IMG/VR virus record: IMGVR_UViG_3300028188_000029
Span: 1 to 22,027 of that record
Strand: one strand, 5' to 3'
Length of the DNA stretch: 22,027 nucleotides
DNA from: a virus
Under the pieces are notes generated by a model. The model saw only the letters and a list, made by a program, of their open reading frames with translations. It was not told the origin of the DNA and did no database searches. Of the stretch, positions 1,249 through 17,205 are shown in pieces (within the stretch, counting starts at the first letter, position 1; each line of letters begins with the position of its first letter). The position numbers were made by a program, and so were the translations under genes.

Positions 1249-1560
1249 TTAATCTTGATCTAAAAATAATAGCAATTTGGTTCTAATATCTTTTAATGAT
1301 ATATTCTCGAACCATTCACCACGAACATGGTTTTTTTGGAATTGCAGATGTAGATACTTCTCTGCCTTATGTGGGTTTTTTCGTTCATCTAAGTATTCTA
1401 ACTGCAATGGACAAGGGTTACCAGTTTGCAACGCTTTCATCCTACGTTCTATATTGTTAGTAACCCCTATTTTAAATAAATTACCCGCTGATATCACATA
1501 AAGATGGGTGTGCTTAGACGGTTTCTTTACTCTAATTTTTATTTCAGCATAATTTTTCAA
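1249..1560 (-). CDS. Small GIY-YIG-type nuclease (T5orf172/MUG113 group)
   Basis: The 103-residue protein is a single compact domain. THLYVISAGNLFKIGVTNN (18-36) supplies the GIY/YIG-like strands, ERRMKALQTGNPCPLQL the following helix with the basic residue, and KAEKYLHLQF plus RGEWFENIS the conserved Glu and C-terminal motif. This is the layout of the T5orf172/MUG113 branch of the GIY-YIG nuclease superfamily, often found as free-standing mobile genes in phages. No extra DNA-binding domain is present. The first usable start is TTG at 1560, directly after the TAG stop of the 777-residue gene (TAGTTG), so translation probably depends on coupling. It sits between a structural-type gene and gp32, a typical place for a homing gene. 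Target and activity are unknown. Confidence 0.7.
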   Translation of the reverse strand: MKNYAEIKIRVKKPSKHTHLYVISAGNLFKIGVTNNIERRMKALQTGNPCPLQLEYLDERKNPHKAEKYLHLQFQKNHVRGEWFENISLKDIRTKLLLFLDQD

Positions 1561-3915: not shown

Positions 3916-4098
3916 TTATTCATAGTCTTCATCTTCCATTCCTTCATAATAGTATCCACGGTCATCCCAAATTTTGTTTGCAACCATAAAATCTGCTAAA
4001 TTATCAAATGTGATCCAGTCATCGGATTCTTCCATCCCCATATTAGCTATTATCTCCAGAAAGAACTTACTTGGTATCAAAAACCCATATACTGCCAC
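3916..4098 (-). CDS. Small acidic protein, C-terminal part after a +1 frame break
   Basis: This frame encodes FFLEIIANMGMEESDDWITF... and ends in an acidic tail YYYEGMEDEDYE. The only in-frame start is GTG at 4098, with no ribosome binding site. The first 11 codons overlap the end of the ORF 4067-4183, which has a much better start. Removing one base from the T5 run (A5 on the plus strand, 4079-4083) would fuse both into one 88-residue protein, with the junction reading GSIWVLIPSKFFLEII. I therefore read this as the C-terminal half of one gene with a frame break, not as an independent gene. Its function is unknown. Confidence 0.5.
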   Translation of the reverse strand: MAVYGFLIPSKFFLEIIANMGMEESDDWITFDNLADFMVANKIWDDRGYYYEGMEDEDYE

Positions 4099-4183
4099 GA
4101 TGTGCGACTACCGTGGTTCCTTCACCGGCTGTGCGGTGGCGAATGATCATTTCATTCAGTGGTATTAATTCTTCAATAAGCAT
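4067..4183 (-). CDS. Small protein downstream of terminase, N-terminal part (38 codons)
   Basis: The ORF starts MLIEELIPLNEMIIRHRTAG at the ATG at 4183, 12 nt after the terminase stop, and ends at TAA (4067-4069). It continues sensibly in the +1 frame into the ORF 3916-4098. TAAATA-TCGGT-ATG precedes it, and the leader is nearly identical to that of the terminase N-terminal gene. Together the two parts form a small acidic phage protein that I cannot assign. It could also be a genuine short gene followed by a second one, but the second has no good start. Confidence 0.5.
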   Translation of the reverse strand: MLIEELIPLNEMIIRHRTAGEGTTVVAHRGSIWVFDTK

Positions 4184-4188
4184 ACCGA

Positions 4189-4194
4189 TATTTA
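4189..4194 (-). promoter_or_regulatory. TAAATA box exactly 5 nt before ATG 4183
   Basis: The whole 12-nt gap after the terminase stop reads GTAAATATCGGT. There is no Shine-Dalgarno sequence at useful spacing. Late-promoter geometry would place +1 at the A of the ATG. Confidence 0.45.
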
Positions 4195-4195
4195 C

Positions 4196-5581
4196 CTAAA
4201 ACATAATAAATGGCATTGGGGATATTGAAACATCCCCATGATCTTGCATTTGGGCACTAAGTCCAGAATCATACGTTTTTAGTTGTTGCATCATCCGCAC
4301 AATTATCAACAATGACATCACCAAGTCATCATTTTCCCCTTGCTTTGCTTCGTAACTAACACCCTTGCTAATAAAAACCTTTAATTCACTTATTAACGGT
4401 TTGCTATAAATGGTTAATCTATCTGATTCAACTAACGATTTTAACTTAGAACATGCTTCTGTTTTTGTGGTTTTATTTGTATTGAATCCTTTCCTTGCTA
4501 TTCTAGTACTACGTGTTTTTTTTGTTTCTGATACAAAAATACCACCCATATTCTCTTCACCAAATTCATCAATGGAAATTAATGCAGCTTCACCCACCGT
4601 GTTATTCTCAACACTAAAATATATATTGTTTTTATTGACAGGGGTCTTTTCATCAATATAATGCATTATATCACTCATTATCTTTATCTGTGCTGGAATA
4701 GGTGTCATATTATGCTTCCATTCTGCAACTTGTGTTGTGGTATTAGCCTCAAACACTTGTATACCTGCATAATCCCCACCAGTGCCTATACTCGGATCTA
4801 ACGATATGCAATATATAGTATCTTTTCTGGGTTCTTTATACCACCTAACTTGTCCTTGCATTCTGATTGGGTCAATGCCTTGCATCTCTGATAAAACCAT
4901 TGAATTTATTAAAGTTTCTTCAAACGACACAAATTTACAGTTGTGTTCACGTTCGAATTGATCAGGTTCCATTTTAGCCCTTTCTTTTTTCTCCCATGCA
5001 GCATCACGGTCAGGATGATCACTCCATATCGCTGAATATGGTCTATATCCATTAATTCCCAATTCGGTTGGGTTTCCGTATTCATCCTCTTGCTTGTTTG
5101 CCCCTTTCCATATAGTAGCGAACTGATCTTCATCATTATTGGGTGTACTAGTAATCATAGATTTACCACCAGTTGACAATGTAGGCGAAATAGAAGTCCA
5201 AAATAATTTGGCAATATTTGGTGGCACGAAGGAAAATTCATCTAGATACAAACAATTGTGAACAATTATATTATTAGCCACAAACGAATTCGTATCCTTG
5301 ACATTTAACAAATCCGAGACTTCTTGCACACCGACATATTCAGTGCCAATACATCTCTCTTGACCTGACGCAGTTTTTATATTATCACCTATTGAAATAT
5401 CATTAAACTCAACCCATTCATTTGATGTGATAGAAAAAAATAAATGATCTTGCGTGCATTCTATCGATGATTCTTCTAATAATAACCTATATGTTTCTTT
5501 TACACTTACAGATATTCCTTCAAAATCTTTAAATCCATCATCTGTTAGTACTTCGAATCTACTATTTTTTTCTACGACCAT
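4196..5581 (-). CDS. gp17: Intein C fragment fused to the C-terminal half of large terminase gp17
   Basis: Residues 1-109 are the C part of a split intein. Block B is CTQDHLF with T43 and H46. The C-terminal blocks are DTNSFVANN and IIVHN, ending at H108-N109. Cys110 is the +1 extein residue. Residues 110-461 are terminase: CLYLDEFSFV with Walker B D114 and catalytic E115, the coupling motif ITSTPNN (about 143-149), then the RNase H-like nuclease with acidic D262 (SLDPSIG), E325 (SVENN) and D418/D419 (ENDDLVMSLL). The protein should trans-splice with the product of 6405-7019 to give gp17, which pumps DNA into the prohead and cuts concatemers. ATG 5581 overlaps the 3' end of the homing endonuclease gene and has an AGGAAAGG site just upstream. 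No conserved terminase block appears to be missing. Confidence 0.9.
   Translation of the reverse strand: MVVEKNSRFEVLTDDGFKDFEGISVSVKETYRLLLEESSIECTQDHLFFSITSNEWVEFNDISIGDNIKTASGQERCIGTEYVGVQEVSDLLNVKDTNSFVANNIIVHNCLYLDEFSFVPPNIAKLFWTSISPTLSTGGKSMITSTPNNDEDQFATIWKGANKQEDEYGNPTELGINGYRPYSAIWSDHPDRDAAWEKKERAKMEPDQFEREHNCKFVSFEETLINSMVLSEMQGIDPIRMQGQVRWYKEPRKDTIYCISLDPSIGTGGDYAGIQVFEANTTTQVAEWKHNMTPIPAQIKIMSDIMHYIDEKTPVNKNNIYFSVENNTVGEAALISIDEFGEENMGGIFVSETKKTRSTRIARKGFNTNKTTKTEACSKLKSLVESDRLTIYSKPLISELKVFISKGVSYEAKQGENDDLVMSLLIIVRMMQQLKTYDSGLSAQMQDHGDVSISPMPFIMF
5255..5581 (-). other. Split intein C fragment (109 residues)
   Basis: The fragment begins at its own start codon and ends at the Asn before the extein Cys (codon at 5252-5254). 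It carries blocks B, F and G and contains no endonuclease domain. Starting so early in the fold, it holds most of the HINT domain. Confidence 0.87.
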
Positions 5582-5816
5582 AACCTTTCCTATATCCTTC
5601 TGGAATTACTTCCCCTTTTTTCAGCATCTTTACTTCCAATGTGCTAGCTGAATGGATATAAAAACATCCTTTATTATTAGGTCCTCTTGCTTTGGCGGCT
5701 AAAGACATTTTTTTCTTAGCTTCCGCACTTCTCTTCATTCCTTTGTGTTTTTCTGCTGTTTTTCTTATTTTCTCAGGATCTGTATTTTGTGGGTTTCTTC
5801 TGCTAATACCTACCAA
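5562..5816 (-). CDS. GIY-YIG homing endonuclease, C-terminal part (NUMOD-type) after a frame break
   Basis: The frame is open upstream of the TTG at 5816 and continues to about 5910. The upstream codons encode REILAISAKERFSG and TQEHRKKISDALVGISRRN, typical NUMOD3-like DNA-binding repeats. It then runs KAEKHKGMKRSAEAKKKMSLAAKARG and ends in KGYGRRKK. It is the natural continuation of the ORF 5881-6396, displaced by +1. Deleting one base from the A4 run (plus strand 5904-5907) would restore one 277-residue protein. The TTG is therefore unlikely to be a true start. The last codons overlap the start of the intein-C/terminase gene. Confidence 0.6.
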   Translation of the reverse strand: MVGISRRNPQNTDPEKIRKTAEKHKGMKRSAEAKKKMSLAAKARGPNNKGCFYIHSASTLEVKMLKKGEVIPEGYRKGYGRRKK

Positions 5817-5880
5817 TGCATCTGAAATCTTTTTTCTATGTTCTTGGGTTTTAGGGACACCACTAAACCGCTCCTTGGCA

Positions 5881-6396
5881 CTAATTGCAAGAATTTCTCT
5901 TAATTTTATTCTTATGTTCTTCAGATAGTGTCCATTGAGATCGTTCTTTTGATAGTAATTCTTTGCGTAATATACCAGCTTCAGTATCCCAGTATTCGTT
6001 TCTTTTTTGTTGTTCTTCAGGGCTTCTAACTCTTCCAGACAATTTTTTAGATATTAGTTTTTTAGTAGCCGATGTATGTTTCTTTCCATAAAAACCATTA
6101 TCTTCCCCAAATAATATAGGTGTTTTGGATGCTATTATATTATAATATTCATCTGATTCAGCTACATTCCGATTTTGTAATTCATCATATTCTGTATCAG
6201 ATAACTCAGTAGCCGTTGCACACCAATGAAGTATACTGCGTTCAAAGCTGTTAGTTCCATATTTGTTAATTGCATTCTTAATTACTTTTCCAGAGCCCCA
6301 ATAAAAATCATCAAAGGTAGATGATGCCCGCATTCCTACATATTTCTTATTATTAATTTTATTTGTTATTAAATAAACATATCCATAATTTTCCAT
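5881..6396 (-). CDS. GIY-YIG homing endonuclease, catalytic N-terminal part
   Basis: GYVYLITNKINNKKYVGMR (5-23) is a clear GIY-YIG motif with catalytic Arg23. FYWGSGKVIKNAINKYG and ELSDTEYDELQNRN (Glu72) complete the nuclease domain of about 80 residues. After it come NUMOD3-like DNA-binding repeats (GEDNGFYGKKHTSATKKLISKKLSGR, and WTLSEEHKNKI just before the break). The gene begins 8 nt after the terminase/intein-N stop with a strong GGAGAAAGT site. It lies exactly between the two intein halves, where a LAGLIDADG or HNH domain would sit inside a contiguous intein. It probably moves the intein by cutting intein-free terminase genes, which is inference. The frame ends early at TAG 5881 because of a +1 shift, so the product may be inactive as sequenced. 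Confidence 0.82.
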   Translation of the reverse strand: MENYGYVYLITNKINNKKYVGMRASSTFDDFYWGSGKVIKNAINKYGTNSFERSILHWCATATELSDTEYDELQNRNVAESDEYYNIIASKTPILFGEDNGFYGKKHTSATKKLISKKLSGRVRSPEEQQKRNEYWDTEAGILRKELLSKERSQWTLSEEHKNKIKRNSCN

Positions 6397-6404
6397 ACTT
6401 TCTC

Positions 6405-7019
6405 CTATTGCATACCTCTATTTAACTGGATAAGCTCGTTAATGGTAATTTGCATAACATTTCCAGTTTCTTTATCTCGTACTGTAACTTTGCTATTCTG
6501 CGTTGAAACACATGTTATAGATAGCCCGCGCCCTGTGTTCTCTGTGGTTGCTTGAGAAATTATTCTGCTACCATTATCGAATTCAATTGAACCTTTGTTG
6601 TAACTGGTAGCACCAGCCCTGATATGATCTGGACATAATTCGTATGCATAACGAATACGTTGCATAATTTCTAAAGCACCATCGTATTTGTGTGCTGCAA
6701 TTAAAATAGTCGATGATGGTTTAAACATTGCAAACCACAACAAATAGCCAGACGCTGCTGTAGTTTTTCCCAATTGCCTGCCAAGTAACGCTATCGAATG
6801 ATCATAGTTATGATATGTATCTACTAATCCTATCTGAAATGGATAAGGATCATACATTAGTTTTCCCTTAGTGGGATGCTGTATCCAGAAGAAGTTCTTC
6901 ATAAAGTAATGTGGTCCACTTACTGGATTAACACACTCAACAAAGTCAGTAATTTGGCCATCGGTGTATGCCGTTTTGACATGTGCTTTTTTAGTTAATA
7001 CACCATCCAATGATTTCAT
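6405..7019 (-). CDS. gp17: Large terminase gp17 N-terminal ATPase half fused to an intein N fragment
   Basis: Residues 1-169 are the terminase ATPase N-terminus. YDPYPFQIGLVDTYHNYDHSIALLG leads into the Walker A GRQLGKTT (80-87), followed by SSTILIAAHK and SIEFDNGSRIISQATTENTGRGLSIT, the conserved approach to Walker B. At Cys170 the terminase sequence stops and a 35-residue intein N fragment (CVSTQNSKVTVRDKETG... to Gln204) follows, ending in TAG. The rest of the ATPase resumes at 5254 on a separate gene. Unspliced, neither half has a complete ATPase site. The start lies 12 nt after the radical SAM stop, and that gap is GTAAATAACCGC, with no Shine-Dalgarno sequence. Confidence 0.9.
   Translation of the reverse strand: MKSLDGVLTKKAHVKTAYTDGQITDFVECVNPVSGPHYFMKNFFWIQHPTKGKLMYDPYPFQIGLVDTYHNYDHSIALLGRQLGKTTAASGYLLWFAMFKPSSTILIAAHKYDGALEIMQRIRYAYELCPDHIRAGATSYNKGSIEFDNGSRIISQATTENTGRGLSITCVSTQNSKVTVRDKETGNVMQITINELIQLNRGMQ
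6408..6512 (-). other. Split intein N fragment (35 residues)
   Basis: The fragment has the nucleophile Cys as residue 1 and a block A pattern, with beta strands VTVRD and VMQITINEL around a Gly turn. It is far shorter than the roughly 100-residue N fragments of DnaE-type split inteins and close in size to the AceL-TerL type (about 25 residues). The block B His is on the C fragment instead. Confidence 0.85.
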
Positions 7020-7024
7020 GCGGT

Positions 7025-7030
7025 TATTTA
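7025..7030 (-). promoter_or_regulatory. TAAATA box exactly 5 nt before terminase ATG 7019
   Basis: TAAATA-ACCGC-ATG fills the gap between the radical SAM stop and the terminase start. The 19 bases around it match the leader at 4181-4199 at 16 positions. Confidence 0.45.
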
Positions 7031-7031
7031 C

Positions 7032-7448
7032 CTAACCACCACAATTATCATTGCAAATTACTAGCTTTCCATCTTCAAATGTGTTTTTAGTCCAAGTATT
7101 AGATACATTAGAAAACCATTCAATACATTGTCCTATCGAATACTTAATAGCATTATTATACTGGATTAGATGCTTAAATTGATTGTTTGCTGCTTGATGG
7201 TAAATGCCATTGCCATATGTTTTTGGTTCAAACCCCAAATAGCAACATGGATAAACATCTCCCAATGATGATATATATATTTCATTGGTATGTTTAATTT
7301 CACAGTCTATTTTTCTAGGAGTTTTTTTATCCACTATATCTTCCAACAGGACTTCACTGGTTTTTCGATGTTCTATTGAGTAAGGATAGTTAACATCTTC
7401 ATTATCTTGTATCAAATGAATCTGTCCCCCCCCTCTTATTATGCACAT
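7032..7448 (-). CDS. Radical SAM/SPASM protein, C-terminal part after a frame break
   Basis: This frame carries the auxiliary cluster region. RKIDCEIKHTNEIYISSLG and DVYPCCYLGFE form the typical SPASM/twitch signature, followed by GQCIEWF and a terminal CNDNCGG, seven Cys in all. In the SPASM families these bind one or two extra [4Fe-4S] clusters. The apparent start at 7448 lies inside the upstream ORF and has no ribosome binding site. The real relation is continuity with 7402-8031: removing one G from a G8 run (C8 on the plus strand, 7426-7433) gives one 332-residue protein reading NKRGGQIHLIQ across the join. The stop lies 12 nt before terminase. Confidence 0.65.
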   Translation of the reverse strand: MCIIRGGGQIHLIQDNEDVNYPYSIEHRKTSEVLLEDIVDKKTPRKIDCEIKHTNEIYISSLGDVYPCCYLGFEPKTYGNGIYHQAANNQFKHLIQYNNAIKYSIGQCIEWFSNVSNTWTKNTFEDGKLVICNDNCGG

Positions 7449-8031
7449 TCAAATCATGTCTTGTATTATGCACTAAATTAAACGCACTGAATCCTATATT
7501 TTCAGTTATTTGGCGGATTTCATTGCGTTGTGTTTTATTATAAGCAAAATCAATTGTACTACAAATAGCTTTACCACCTGCATTTATAAATACTTCGGCA
7601 TTTTTTAAAATAACATTAAGAGATGTATTTTGTCTATATATTACATGTGTGTCATATAACCCATCAATACAGAACGATATAGTTATTCCTAATTTACCTA
7701 GTCTTTCCCAGAAATCAGTTCTTCTCCCTGAACCATTAGTAGATACAAATACAGCAATATTGCCATTTTGTTTTAATAACCATTCTATAATATCGGCACT
7801 TTCTGGATTCATTATAAAATCACCAAAGTTACCATTAATTCTTATCCGTTTTATTTGGTCAAGGAAATTATTATCAAATATTGACTGGACATCAGCCAAT
7901 GTTAGGTTACGTTCAATATATCCATCATTGTATGGCTGTCCATAAAAATTACGAGGACATCCAGAGCATCGCGCATTGCACAATGATGAAAGTTCAAGGT
8001 GGATACGGGCAATATCATTAACTAGTAACAT
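7402..8031 (-). CDS. Radical SAM protein, catalytic N-terminal part
   Basis: HLELSSLCNARCSGCPRN contains the radical SAM CxxxCxxC motif (C18, C22, C25) that binds the [4Fe-4S] cluster used to split S-adenosylmethionine. IRINGNFGDFIMNPE takes the GGE-motif position, and VFVSTNGSGRR and ISFCIDGL are the next barrel strands, as in SPASM-type radical SAM enzymes. The frame ends shortly after the G8 run where the C-terminal domain continues in +1. The substrate is unknown. Family members modify peptides, sugars or other small molecules. It follows the 392-residue possible glycosyltransferase after a structured spacer and terminator, and its start is TAAATA-ACCAT-ATG without a Shine-Dalgarno sequence. 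If the break is real, the protein lacks its auxiliary clusters. Confidence 0.82.
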   Translation of the reverse strand: MLLVNDIARIHLELSSLCNARCSGCPRNFYGQPYNDGYIERNLTLADVQSIFDNNFLDQIKRIRINGNFGDFIMNPESADIIEWLLKQNGNIAVFVSTNGSGRRTDFWERLGKLGITISFCIDGLYDTHVIYRQNTSLNVILKNAEVFINAGGKAICSTIDFAYNKTQRNEIRQITENIGFSAFNLVHNTRHDLNVHNKRGGTDSFDTR

Positions 8032-8036
8032 ATGGT

Positions 8037-8042
8037 TATTTA
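8037..8042 (-). promoter_or_regulatory. TAAATA box exactly 5 nt before radical SAM ATG 8031
   Basis: The box follows 10 nt after the T run of the terminator at 8053-8076, so a new transcript would be needed for efficient expression of the gene. This makes the promoter reading more likely here than elsewhere. Confidence 0.5.
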
Positions 8043-8052
8043 ATCAAATAAC

Positions 8053-8076
8053 AAAAAACCTACTAGAAAGTAGGTT
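8053..8076 (-). terminator. Rho-independent terminator upstream of the radical SAM gene
   Basis: The minus strand reads AACCTACT, loop TTCT, AGTAGGTT, then a run of T, giving an 8-bp perfect stem. It closes the transcript coming from the 392-residue gene and the structured region 8092-8150. Confidence 0.75.
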
Positions 8077-8091
8077 CAGTCTCGTTTTTCA

Positions 8092-8150
8092 AGTACGCTG
8101 GTAGCGAAAGCGTACTATGTGGTGGTTAGCACCGTCATAACCCTAGCGGT
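8092..8150 (-). ncRNA. Structured intergenic RNA: hairpin plus possible pseudoknot, ahead of a terminator
   Basis: In the 126-nt gap, AGTACGCT pairs with AGCGTACT around a 9-nt loop (8092-8116). Next to it, on the minus strand, ACCG, GGTTA, CGGT and TAACC occur in the order expected of an H-type pseudoknot (8150 to 8124), with short 4- and 5-bp stems. A terminator follows directly. This could be a small RNA or a stabilising 3' end of the upstream mRNA. I could not fit it to a tRNA. Confidence 0.35.
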
Positions 8151-8157
8151 CCCAAGG

Positions 8158-9336
8158 TTAAACTTTTTCTTTCATTTTGCCCTCAATTATATCATTGGCT
8201 CGTTTAACCGTTCTTACATCGATCCCACCAGTTACTGCCTGTATTAAATTGCTACCAACTAAATCACTAAATTCGTTGCTTAAAAATACATCGGGGTTTT
8301 CATTCAACCATCGGATGGCATCTATCATTGCCGTGTATCTTTCTTCATGATCTTTAATAAAATCAAACTGCTGTAAATGTGTCGGTAACAAATTCCACGC
8401 AGTATAAAAATTATTTTCATTCAGTAATGTGTTAATGTTTGATCCACCGAATGCAAAAGGTAAACTTTTAGCATAAAAACACTTGAGGGTTTTTTCTGTT
8501 ATGGTTAACTCATCGTTCTGCCATGCTGTTTCTGGGTATATCACGCAAGAATTGACAAAGTATATTGGTAAAACAGAATATCCAGGTGGGATTTTTCCAA
8601 ACTTCGCATTGATGCCTACATTTAGTTGGGTATCGTAATATGACTGCTGCCTTCCATCCGTTTCATCAACCCACACATCAATTTCATCTCTGTATTTAGA
8701 TTCCAACATACACCTAAAAGTGGTATCCTCATCGGTCTCCCAATACGAATGATTTGTGTTAACTACCTCCGATGCGTAAGTCGAATTAAAAATATTAACA
8801 TTTGTATTGTCTTTTATCTTATTAAAAAAATGATGCCTCCATGTTCTGTTTTGACCGTTAATTGCAATTATAGTTGGTTCTTTTTTTATAGTGCTAGCAT
8901 TCTTGCAATTTTCATAAAAATGAGGATAAAATTTACTAGTGAAATAGTCATTGGTATTTGATGCATCCGCCACAGAAGAAATTACTTTGTCGTATAATAA
9001 ATGCGTCTTACTTAAAATACTCTCAACCACATAATAAACATTATCAAAATCCTGAACTTTGTGCATGGCATCAGTCGAAACCCACAACGGTTCACTAGCA
9101 TTGCTTACGAATATTAAATCGAACTTTTTAATATACTCATTTGGTATATCATCGCTAGGCATACTATCAAACAGAATATTAATATCTGCATTCTCGTTAA
9201 AATCACTGAAATTTATTTGCCAATCTGATTCATAGCTATTATCACAATGTAGATGCTGTCTATACGCATACAATGCGTCAAATATCTGCAAAGAAACACT
9301 GGTATTGGAAACCTGCACGTTGATTACTCTATTCAT
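8158..9336 (-). CDS. Unknown 392-residue protein, possible glycosyltransferase
   Basis: The protein has no signal peptide or membrane segment. The N-terminal half has alternating strands and helices (INILFDSMP, FDLIFVSNAS). The C-terminal half contains NSCVIYPETAWQN and then LTITEKTLKCFYAKSLPFAFGG (about residues 277-298). That resembles the donor-binding segment of fucosyltransferase/exostosin-like enzymes, where TEK...ALxAGxxPI is conserved. The resemblance is by eye and weak, so the function is tentative. A sugar-transfer role would fit a neighbour of a radical SAM enzyme in a virion gene cluster. It is preceded by a 6-bp hairpin and TAAATA-TCACG-ATG without a Shine-Dalgarno sequence, and followed by a structured spacer and terminator. 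Confidence 0.7.
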   Translation of the reverse strand: MNRVINVQVSNTSVSLQIFDALYAYRQHLHCDNSYESDWQINFSDFNENADINILFDSMPSDDIPNEYIKKFDLIFVSNASEPLWVSTDAMHKVQDFDNVYYVVESILSKTHLLYDKVISSVADASNTNDYFTSKFYPHFYENCKNASTIKKEPTIIAINGQNRTWRHHFFNKIKDNTNVNIFNSTYASEVVNTNHSYWETDEDTTFRCMLESKYRDEIDVWVDETDGRQQSYYDTQLNVGINAKFGKIPPGYSVLPIYFVNSCVIYPETAWQNDELTITEKTLKCFYAKSLPFAFGGSNINTLLNENNFYTAWNLLPTHLQQFDFIKDHEERYTAMIDAIRWLNENPDVFLSNEFSDLVGSNLIQAVTGGIDVRTVKRANDIIEGKMKEKV

Positions 9337-15573: not shown

Positions 15574-17133
15574 CTATTTCCTCCATATATACTTGGAACT
15601 TCCACAATCATATATCCGTAAATACCCCTCTGATAACCTCAATTCCCTCTCAGTATCAACACAACCACTTGGTTTCCTTAATGCATACCTATGAATTCTA
15701 TTCATCTCATTAGGCAATATATACCAATAATTGGGAACAGTGTCCTTGGTATGATCAAATCCTAACTTTTCGTAGAATGGAGAAACAGCACTCCATCGCC
15801 TATCAGCATATGAGATTACTGTTTCTGTATTATGATGGCGTGTAAAATATTTGAACAATTTAGATGCACCTCCAACCACAGTAACCCCAGATTTATTACA
15901 AAAACGGTTCAGTTCCCAATCAGTAATCCCTTTGCTAATATCCCCATTCAAAAAAGTCATAACAGCTACCAATTCAGAATCATTCCATAACCCTAGATGC
16001 ACATTTGCACGACCTGATCCCTGTATATGATATCTCTTTATGAATGCATTAGCCTCCGTTGGTTTAATCGTTTTGACTTCGCATTTCCTAGCATATATTC
16101 TTTTATTAATACCCAACATATTCTTTAATCGGTCTTTTACTATGGTAGGCGTATTCTCATACTCATCTTCAAATACATGAATTAGCCTCACACCATTTTC
16201 TAAACACTTATTGGTCTTATCAAGATGATAGTTTTTATCCTTCCTTAATTCATTATGCCAATACAAGCCATTATATTCAATTGCAACCTTGTACTCAGGA
16301 AGATAGATATCCAACTCTAGTGGCGGTATTATACTCCGGTCGTTTCTTGATACATTGGTATACTGTTCTAACCAATCAGCTATTTCTCTTTCTGCTTTGC
16401 TTGTGCCAATCAAGGGTGGGTAACATTTTGGGCACAATTCATAGGTAATCTTACTCTTTGATGCATATTGATATGTTCTGTTAAAAATGGTATCGCATTG
16501 ATTGCACTTAACATCCATGTATGTATCTTCGATTTTGATAACTGAGTACCCATATTCTCCCATTCGCAATACTGCTTCTTTTTGTGACTGTGCCGTGCGA
16601 ATTTTGTGATGTTCAATGGATTTTTTGGAAATTAGTTTCTTCGACTCATCCGAATGTGTTTTACCACGAAAGAATGCTAGGTCATATCCTCTATCCTTTT
16701 TTGTCTGAATAGCTTTCATTACAGACTCGGTGGTTATTGCCTGATTCGCCCTAGCTTTTTTTATTTTGTCTCTCACCTCTGGTGATCGCTTTGAACCTAC
16801 ATTCGGATGAGTGCCATTCTCTCTCCAAACTCTATTTCGTGCTAATGCTTTCTCTGATAGAATCTTCTTCTGTTCAGCCGACAGTGCAATCCCCTTATTG
16901 TGTGCTACTCTTCCTTTGTTTGATTCAGAAATTCTTTGTTTAGCTGCCTCGGTGTGCTTCTTACCATAATTTGGATTGTTCTTTCCTGAAACGCGATCAC
17001 GTATTCGTTTCTTTAGTTCATCGGGAAACATCTCACCATATGTATTTTTGTATTCATCACTTGATATATTATGACTTTTTAAGTGCTTTCCTGTTATTGC
17101 CTTGAATTCTTTCCCACATACTCCACATTTCAT
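15574..17133 (-). CDS. EDxHD (Vsr-like) homing endonuclease with zinc fingers and NUMOD repeats
   Basis: The 519-residue product counts from ATG 17133, which has an AAAGGA site. The TTG at 17160 is less likely. Residues 3-21 form a Cys2His2-like finger (CGVC...HLKSH). Residues 48-175 hold NUMOD3-type DNA-binding repeats (NPNYGKKHTEAAKQRIS, RGKTHSDESKKLIS). CNQC and CPKC at 210-237 form a zinc ribbon. The nuclease domain is Vsr/EDxHD-like: SKAEREIADWL, LELDIYLPEYKVAIEYNGLYWHNE (D275, E286, H293), LDKTNKCLENGVRLIHVFEDEY. This family includes I-Bth0305I and was described with fractured genes and split inteins. A C-terminal domain (346-475) with FIKRYHIQGSGRANVHLGL and VVGGASKLFKYF is often attached to such enzymes. 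It lies between the sheath and tube genes. Codons are intact, so it may be active. Confidence 0.85.
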   Translation of the reverse strand: MKCGVCGKEFKAITGKHLKSHNISSDEYKNTYGEMFPDELKKRIRDRVSGKNNPNYGKKHTEAAKQRISESNKGRVAHNKGIALSAEQKKILSEKALARNRVWRENGTHPNVGSKRSPEVRDKIKKARANQAITTESVMKAIQTKKDRGYDLAFFRGKTHSDESKKLISKKSIEHHKIRTAQSQKEAVLRMGEYGYSVIKIEDTYMDVKCNQCDTIFNRTYQYASKSKITYELCPKCYPPLIGTSKAEREIADWLEQYTNVSRNDRSIIPPLELDIYLPEYKVAIEYNGLYWHNELRKDKNYHLDKTNKCLENGVRLIHVFEDEYENTPTIVKDRLKNMLGINKRIYARKCEVKTIKPTEANAFIKRYHIQGSGRANVHLGLWNDSELVAVMTFLNGDISKGITDWELNRFCNKSGVTVVGGASKLFKYFTRHHNTETVISYADRRWSAVSPFYEKLGFDHTKDTVPNYWYILPNEMNRIHRYALRKPSGCVDTERELRLSEGYLRIYDCGSSKYIWRK

Positions 17134-17205
17134 ATTATGTCCTTTACATAGATATAGCAATTAAACCACATGACACTATTTAGGCAAAGGGAGAGATGAT
17201 GTAAT

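What the first reader, a model, noticed from the sequence alone, without database searches (positions are those of the whole stretch)
5255..6512. Atypically early intein split (35 + 109 residues)
Only block A is on the N fragment, while blocks B, F and G are on the C fragment. Canonical DnaE-type split inteins break at the old endonuclease site, after about 100 residues. AceL-TerL (about 25 + 104) is the known precedent, also in a phage terminase. This sequence is an independent, divergent member with a longer N fragment.
Basis: partly seen in the sequence, partly recalled or inferred. Interest (0 to 1): 0.7.

Follow-up and report, generated by a model that had tools for sequence, protein, structure and literature searches.

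The report
Early-split terminase intein, decaying homing gene
A phage DNA-packaging gene is encoded in two halves that an intein, itself cut unusually early, should join at the protein level; the early cut is normal for this known family, but relatives suggest such cuts are caused by a parasitic endonuclease gene and can be undone when that gene is lost.

Summary
On the minus strand a T4-type terminase large subunit (TerL) gene is cut into TerL-N+IntN (35 aa) and IntC (109 aa)+TerL-C, with Cys1, Thr43, His46, His108, Asn109 and Cys+1 all present. No central segment is missing: the nearest relative (L178, same insertion site) is a contiguous 154-aa intein that aligns end to end with only a roughly 10-residue linker at the split. 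It folds confidently as an intein, closest to VidaL.

The early split is not unusual for this family. AceL-TerL (25+104) and GOS-TerL (37+115) bracket it, and I found more than 30 TerL inteins at several sites split at the same loop, including in cultured T4-like phages. It is a new member of a known kind (AceL/GOS-type intein in a 'fractured gene').

New here: a GIY-YIG homing endonuclease gene (HEG) sits in the split. In this window it is broken by an 80-bp deletion; near-identical contigs keep it whole. Some HEG-less relatives keep an out-of-frame remnant of the HEG 3' end next to IntC. In L085 (strong) and L178 (weaker) it lies inside the linker of a contiguous intein, suggesting the split can be reversed. 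Splicing itself is untested.

The parts
6513..7019 (-). TerL N-extein (169 aa, ATPase domain with Walker A GRQLGKT), ends GRGLSIT
   Evidence: Pfam Terminase_6N E=3.2e-9; 62-72% identical TerLs in IMG/VR
6408..6512 (-). IntN, 35 aa: CVSTQNSKVTVRDKETGNVMQITINELIQLNRGMQ (Cys1, block A, first helix); stop TAG 6405-6407
   Evidence: Translation; 58% identity to the N part of contiguous intein L178
5908..6396 (-). Homing endonuclease gene, 5' part: GIY-YIG domain and NUMOD3; reading frame stops at 5881
   Evidence: Pfam SegE_GIY-YIG E=7.9e-10, NUMOD3, GIY-YIG; intact 304-aa version in L002 and L004
5907..5908 (-). Junction of an 80-bp deletion (frameshift) relative to L002/L003/L004, at short direct repeats AAAATAAG / AAAATTAAG (position approximate to a few bases because of the repeats)
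   Evidence: Alignment of the HEG region
5562..5907 (-). Homing endonuclease gene, 3' part, now out of frame; its last bases overlap the start of IntC
5255..5581 (-). IntC, 109 aa, ATG 5581; T43xxH46 (block B), D90 (block F), H108-N109 (block G)
   Evidence: CatC 6dsl E=1.3e-5; AlphaFold2 pLDDT 94.6, Foldseek VidaL 1.8e-6, gp41-1, Cat
4196..5254 (-). TerL C-extein (352 aa plus stop), begins C-LYLDEF: Cys+1, Walker B LYLDE, then nuclease domain
   Evidence: Pfam Terminase_6N C-part E=4.5e-6 and Terminase_6C E=1.2e-8; 11 of 12 codon differences to near-identical contigs are synonymous

Best explanation
It is a naturally split, class-1-type intein of the AceL/GOS-TerL ('atypical', S2-split) kind, in a fractured T4-type terminase gene. 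TerL-N-IntN and IntC-TerL-C are made from two ORFs; the 35-residue IntN docks into the nearly complete IntC, and Cys1/Cys+1 chemistry plus Asn109 cyclisation join GRGLSIT to CLYLDEF, rebuilding the Walker B strand. The cut lies in the loop after the first helix because a GIY-YIG homing endonuclease gene occupies that point. The endonuclease gene is the selfish part: it is intact in near-identical phages and broken here, while intein and terminase stay conserved. Shown: gene order, residues, fold by model and homology, gap-free spliced product, HEG deletion. Inferred: actual trans-splicing, former HEG activity, and the order of evolutionary steps.
For: Both halves carry the expected blocks. The ligated TerL aligns without gaps around the junction to 147 of 149 intein-free-at-this-site TerLs, which have Leu (140) where the window has the obligatory Cys+1. 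Contiguous sister L178, at the same TerL site, aligns end to end with a roughly 10-aa linker (tree support 99/91), models at pLDDT 92 with low confidence only around residues 31-50, spanning the split loop just after helix 24-32, and matches VidaL at Z 19.5, rmsd 1.8 A over 136 residues. Window IntC matches CatC by sequence and fold. A clade at the same site has the same split and a GIY-YIG gene between. Intact 304-aa HEG in L002 and L004, with the same 80 bp also present in L003. 11 of 12 codon changes in TerL-C are synonymous.
Against: No splicing or protein data. The two-chain complex could not be modelled; the fold of the joined form rests on L178. IntN is short and its similarity alone is weak. 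The 80-bp deletion is in one assembled contig and could not be checked against reads. Direct identity to CatC is only about 28% (fold alignment).
Confidence: 0.92

Rival explanations
1. The gene is split at RNA level (group I or II intron carrying a GIY-YIG endonuclease), not by an intein.
For: GIY-YIG endonucleases in T4-like phages often live in group I introns (general knowledge).
Against: No Rfam family matches 4000-8200 even at E<=1. The flanks encode intein blocks with catalytic residues, and the contiguous homologue encodes the same intein in frame.
Confidence: 0.02
2. terL is simply broken by an endonuclease insertion and the halves are dead or work unjoined.
For: The HEG in this window is itself broken, and genes-in-pieces that work unjoined are known in phages (cited in PMC10448857).
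Against: Intein residues are conserved on both halves, the junction is gap-free, TerL-C is under purifying selection, and the same layout recurs in cultured T4-like phages.
Confidence: 0.04
3. Contiguous inteins are the ancestral form and each was cut independently by endonuclease insertion; no split intein was ever re-fused. (Rival on the evolutionary order only.)
For: Reviews give this direction: a split intein may evolve by a break in a mini-intein (PMC7765530). Some contiguous members (L015, L180) show no clear HEG remnant.
Against: L085 is nested among split, HEG-bearing relatives, and its linker DNA is 50/60 identical to the 3' end of their HEG, read in another frame (profile score 22.8 bits, 0 of 20000 shuffles). 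L178 shows the same more weakly (9.2 bits, 2 of 20000).
Confidence: 0.25

Closest known systems
AceL-TerL, GOS-TerL and consensus Cat inteins (atypically split, S2)
   Same: Phage terminase large subunit; short IntN and long IntC; cut after the first helix; Cys+1; CatC is the best PDB sequence match to window IntC.
   Different: Only about 28% identical to CatC; apparently another TerL insertion site (C-LYLDE before Walker B, versus a site with Glu at +2 for Cat); IntN 35 aa, between 25 (AceL) and 37 (GOS).
VidaL intein (6vgv)
   Same: Best structural match of both models; naturally and atypically split.
   Different: VidaL is cut after strand beta2 (S1, IntN 16 aa); this one is cut after the first helix (S2) (PMC13014065).
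Fractured genes with split inteins (Dassa et al. 2009; known from citations and memory, text not held)
   Same: Conserved phage gene cut by a split intein with a free-standing endonuclease gene between.
   Different: Endonuclease here is GIY-YIG/NUMOD3 and is disrupted; whether that paper had terL or GIY-YIG cases was not checked.
T4-like cultured phages (HY03, phiR1-RT, PspYZU05, JK32, G2494)
   Same: terL halves with the intein cut at the same loop and an endonuclease next to or fused with IntN.
   Different: Inserted 5-6 residues downstream (YIDE|C), with a TnsA-like endonuclease.

Membership tests
Naturally split intein (class 1) | Block A Cys1, block B TxxH, block G HN with Cys/Ser/Thr +1, on two separate ORFs | tested here: met
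Naturally split intein (class 1) | HINT fold of the assembled halves | tested here: inconclusive
   IntC alone and the contiguous sister L178 model as inteins; the two-chain complex could not be run
Naturally split intein (class 1) | Protein trans-splicing activity | not testable with these tools
   Needs expression of both halves
AceL/GOS/Cat atypically split TerL inteins | Split after the first helix (S2), IntN roughly 25-37 aa, in TerL | tested here: met
   L178 model: helix 24-32 then disordered linker where the window is cut; lengths from PMC11766414 and PMC13014065; TerL by Pfam
AceL/GOS/Cat atypically split TerL inteins | Sequence homology to the characterised members | tested here: met
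   CatC 6dsl, E=1.3e-5; fold match E=2.0e-5
AceL/GOS/Cat atypically split TerL inteins | Same insertion site in TerL | tested here: inconclusive
   Cat construct has Glu at +2, as at the EH|C site of L083/L087; window has C-LYLDE. Native AceL/GOS exteins were not seen
Fractured gene (split intein plus free-standing endonuclease) | Endonuclease ORF between the two intein-bearing halves | tested here: met
   GIY-YIG/NUMOD3 gene, intact in L002 and L004 and disrupted in the window
Canonical (DnaE-type) split intein | Cut near the old endonuclease site, IntN about 100 aa, IntC about 35 aa | tested here: not met
   35 + 109
Group I/II intron | Match to an intron covariance model | tested here: not met
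   No Rfam match at E<=1 in 4000-8200

The most novel reading that the evidence does not exclude
Split TerL inteins run a reversible homing cycle. An endonuclease gene settles in the loop after the first helix and fractures the gene; it decays (this window), is deleted leaving an out-of-frame 3' remnant (L151, L183, L081, L230, L233), and in some lineages the two ORFs fuse again into a contiguous intein whose linker is read from the remnant (L085, probably L178). Split and contiguous inteins would then be interchangeable states of one element.
Probability: 0.6. Interest if true: 0.65.

Novelty: new member of a known kind. Interest (0 to 1): 0.45.

Why it matters
Few atypically split inteins with short IntN have been characterised, and they are sought after for protein labelling; this window and its relatives supply many natural ones, with several per protein in some phages. 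The set also catches different stages of gain, decay and loss of the endonuclease gene, so the question of how split inteins arise, and whether they can revert, becomes directly testable.

Tried and rejected
Missing central segment: rejected by alignment to contiguous L178, L085, L180 and L015. Intron: rejected, no Rfam match. Sequencing frameshift as the sole cause of the broken HEG: rejected as a simple one-base error, since it is an 80-bp deletion at short repeats; an assembly error is not excluded. A scan with the L178 intein found only L178's own contig again. HEG remnants in L227, L180 and L015: looked for, not found or unclear. Two rows of the table (L163 and L231, site EH|C) and the L013/L017/L018 rows are paired or placed uncertainly and are not counted. 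The Dassa 2009 and Sekar 2022 texts are not held, and Thiel 2014 was not read. One genome search failed on wrong coordinates.

Full report
What is there. On the minus strand the window carries one terL gene in two ORFs. The first (7019..6405) is 169 residues of T4-type terminase ending GRGLSIT, followed by 35 intein residues and a stop. The second (5581..4196) starts with 109 intein residues ending IVHN, followed by CLYLDEF and the rest of the terminase (Pfam). Between them lies a GIY-YIG/NUMOD3 endonuclease gene, which the finding does not mention.

The endonuclease gene is broken here. Three near-identical IMG/VR contigs (L002, L003, L004) carry 80 bp more inside it; L002 and L004 were read as one 304-aa ORF. 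In the window those 80 bp are missing, between AAAATAAG and AAAATTAAG, which shifts the frame; the product would stop after 171 residues, keeping the GIY-YIG domain and one NUMOD3. The terminase halves are the same except for nearly always synonymous changes (11 of 12 codon differences). The HEG end overlaps the IntC start in both versions.

It is a complete intein. The best evidence is L178, a contiguous 154-residue intein at the same TerL site (GRGMSIS|CAYLDEF) in another viral contig. Window IntN+IntC aligns to it from end to end, with only a roughly 10-residue linker at the split, and the two are sisters in a tree of 47 IntC sequences (99/91). AlphaFold2 gives L178 pLDDT 92, with low confidence only around residues 31-50, the stretch from the end of helix 24-32 across the split loop. 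Its best structural matches are inteins, VidaL first (Foldseek 5.8e-9; Z 19.5, rmsd 1.8, 136 residues). Window IntC alone: pLDDT 94.6, matching VidaL, gp41-1 and Cat. The two-chain complex could not be modelled with the tools given.

Splicing is inferred, not shown. The joined protein aligns without gaps around the junction to 147 of 149 TerLs that have no insertion at this site; they have Leu in 140 cases where the window has the Cys+1 that splicing needs. No intron model matches.

How unusual is the split? Characterised AceL-TerL is 25+104 and GOS-TerL 37+115, both cut after the first helix, and natural short IntNs run from 15 to 37 aa (PMC11766414; PMC13014065). I surveyed TerL loci from IMG/VR and phage records. 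TerL inteins occur at several sites: before Walker B (window; L178; L200 and L219-L234), a few residues further on (L163, L179, L180, L182, L183; T4-like phages), after Walker A, and at an EH|C site. Among rows with trusted pairing, IntN is mostly 29-51 aa (one outlier of 72, L185) and the cut is in the same loop. So 35+109 is ordinary for the family, and cultured T4-like phages have it in deposited genomes.

At the window's own site there are 13 distinct rows: 12 split and one contiguous (L178). Nine of the split ones have an endonuclease-sized gap; L227, L230 and L233 have none. The gap genes of L200 and L220-L234 that were read are GIY-YIG-like. The window is thus one of a recurrent arrangement at this site, though its closest sequence relative is L178, and the tree does not join the window/L178 pair with the other eleven.

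Endonuclease types differ by site: GIY-YIG (window, L200, L185, weakly Serratia 92A1), HNH-like (L083, weak), DUF7487 (L080, L163), TnsA-like (HY03), DUF559 (L081).

Remnants of lost endonucleases. In split relatives without the gene, the DNA just upstream of IntC still encodes, in another frame, the last part of the related endonuclease: L151, L183, L081 and L230 clearly by eye, L233 more weakly. In the contiguous intein L085 the linker DNA does so too: EFKENTQPEEFNRGRISKK against QFKENQQLEGFVRGRITKK of L166, 50/60 nucleotides identical. A profile of endonuclease tails scores L151 30.0, L085 22.8, L230 12.7, L178 9.2 and L233 6.2 bits; own-composition shuffles reach those scores 0, 0, 1, 2 and 48 times in 20000. 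Part of the L085 match overlaps sequence also conserved as IntC, so the independent part is about 30 nt. Since L085 is nested among split HEG-bearing relatives, the simplest reading is that the gene was lost and the two ORFs re-fused. The same probably holds for L178. The library searched held no report of this, but subscription papers are largely absent.

Verdict. This is a new member of a known kind. The added value is the decaying endonuclease and the evidence that fracture may be reversible.

Noticed in passing
L183:2286-5671 (also L184): TerL appears to be encoded by four consecutive ORFs joined by three early-split inteins (after Walker A, next to Walker B, and EH|C).
   Followed up: partly
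window 7032..8031 (-): A radical SAM ORF (7402..8031) continues in another frame (7032..7448) across a G8 tract; the same tract is in L003 and L004, so it is not a private sequencing error.
   Followed up: partly
window 15574..17160 (-): A 528-aa ORF with NUMOD3 motifs and a Mom-like C-terminal part lies between the tail sheath and tail tube genes; looks like another mobile endonuclease-type gene.
   Followed up: no
window 1249..1560 (-): Small T5orf172/MUG113 ORF directly downstream of the 777-aa gene.
   Followed up: no
L005:1245-2996 and L016:1745-3496: In Krischvirus phages G2494 and JK32 the TerL-N+IntN half is fused in frame to an endonuclease-like tail (583 aa), so IntN is followed by the nuclease in one protein.
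   Followed up: partly
L096, L098, L104: Intein-free TerLs read LLYCDEF, with a Cys where L163-type inteins insert; possible empty or vacated sites.
   Followed up: no
L183 and L211, EH|C site: Near-identical IntCs, one with the endonuclease gene (L211) and one with only its tail left (L183): a second gain/loss pair.
   Followed up: partly
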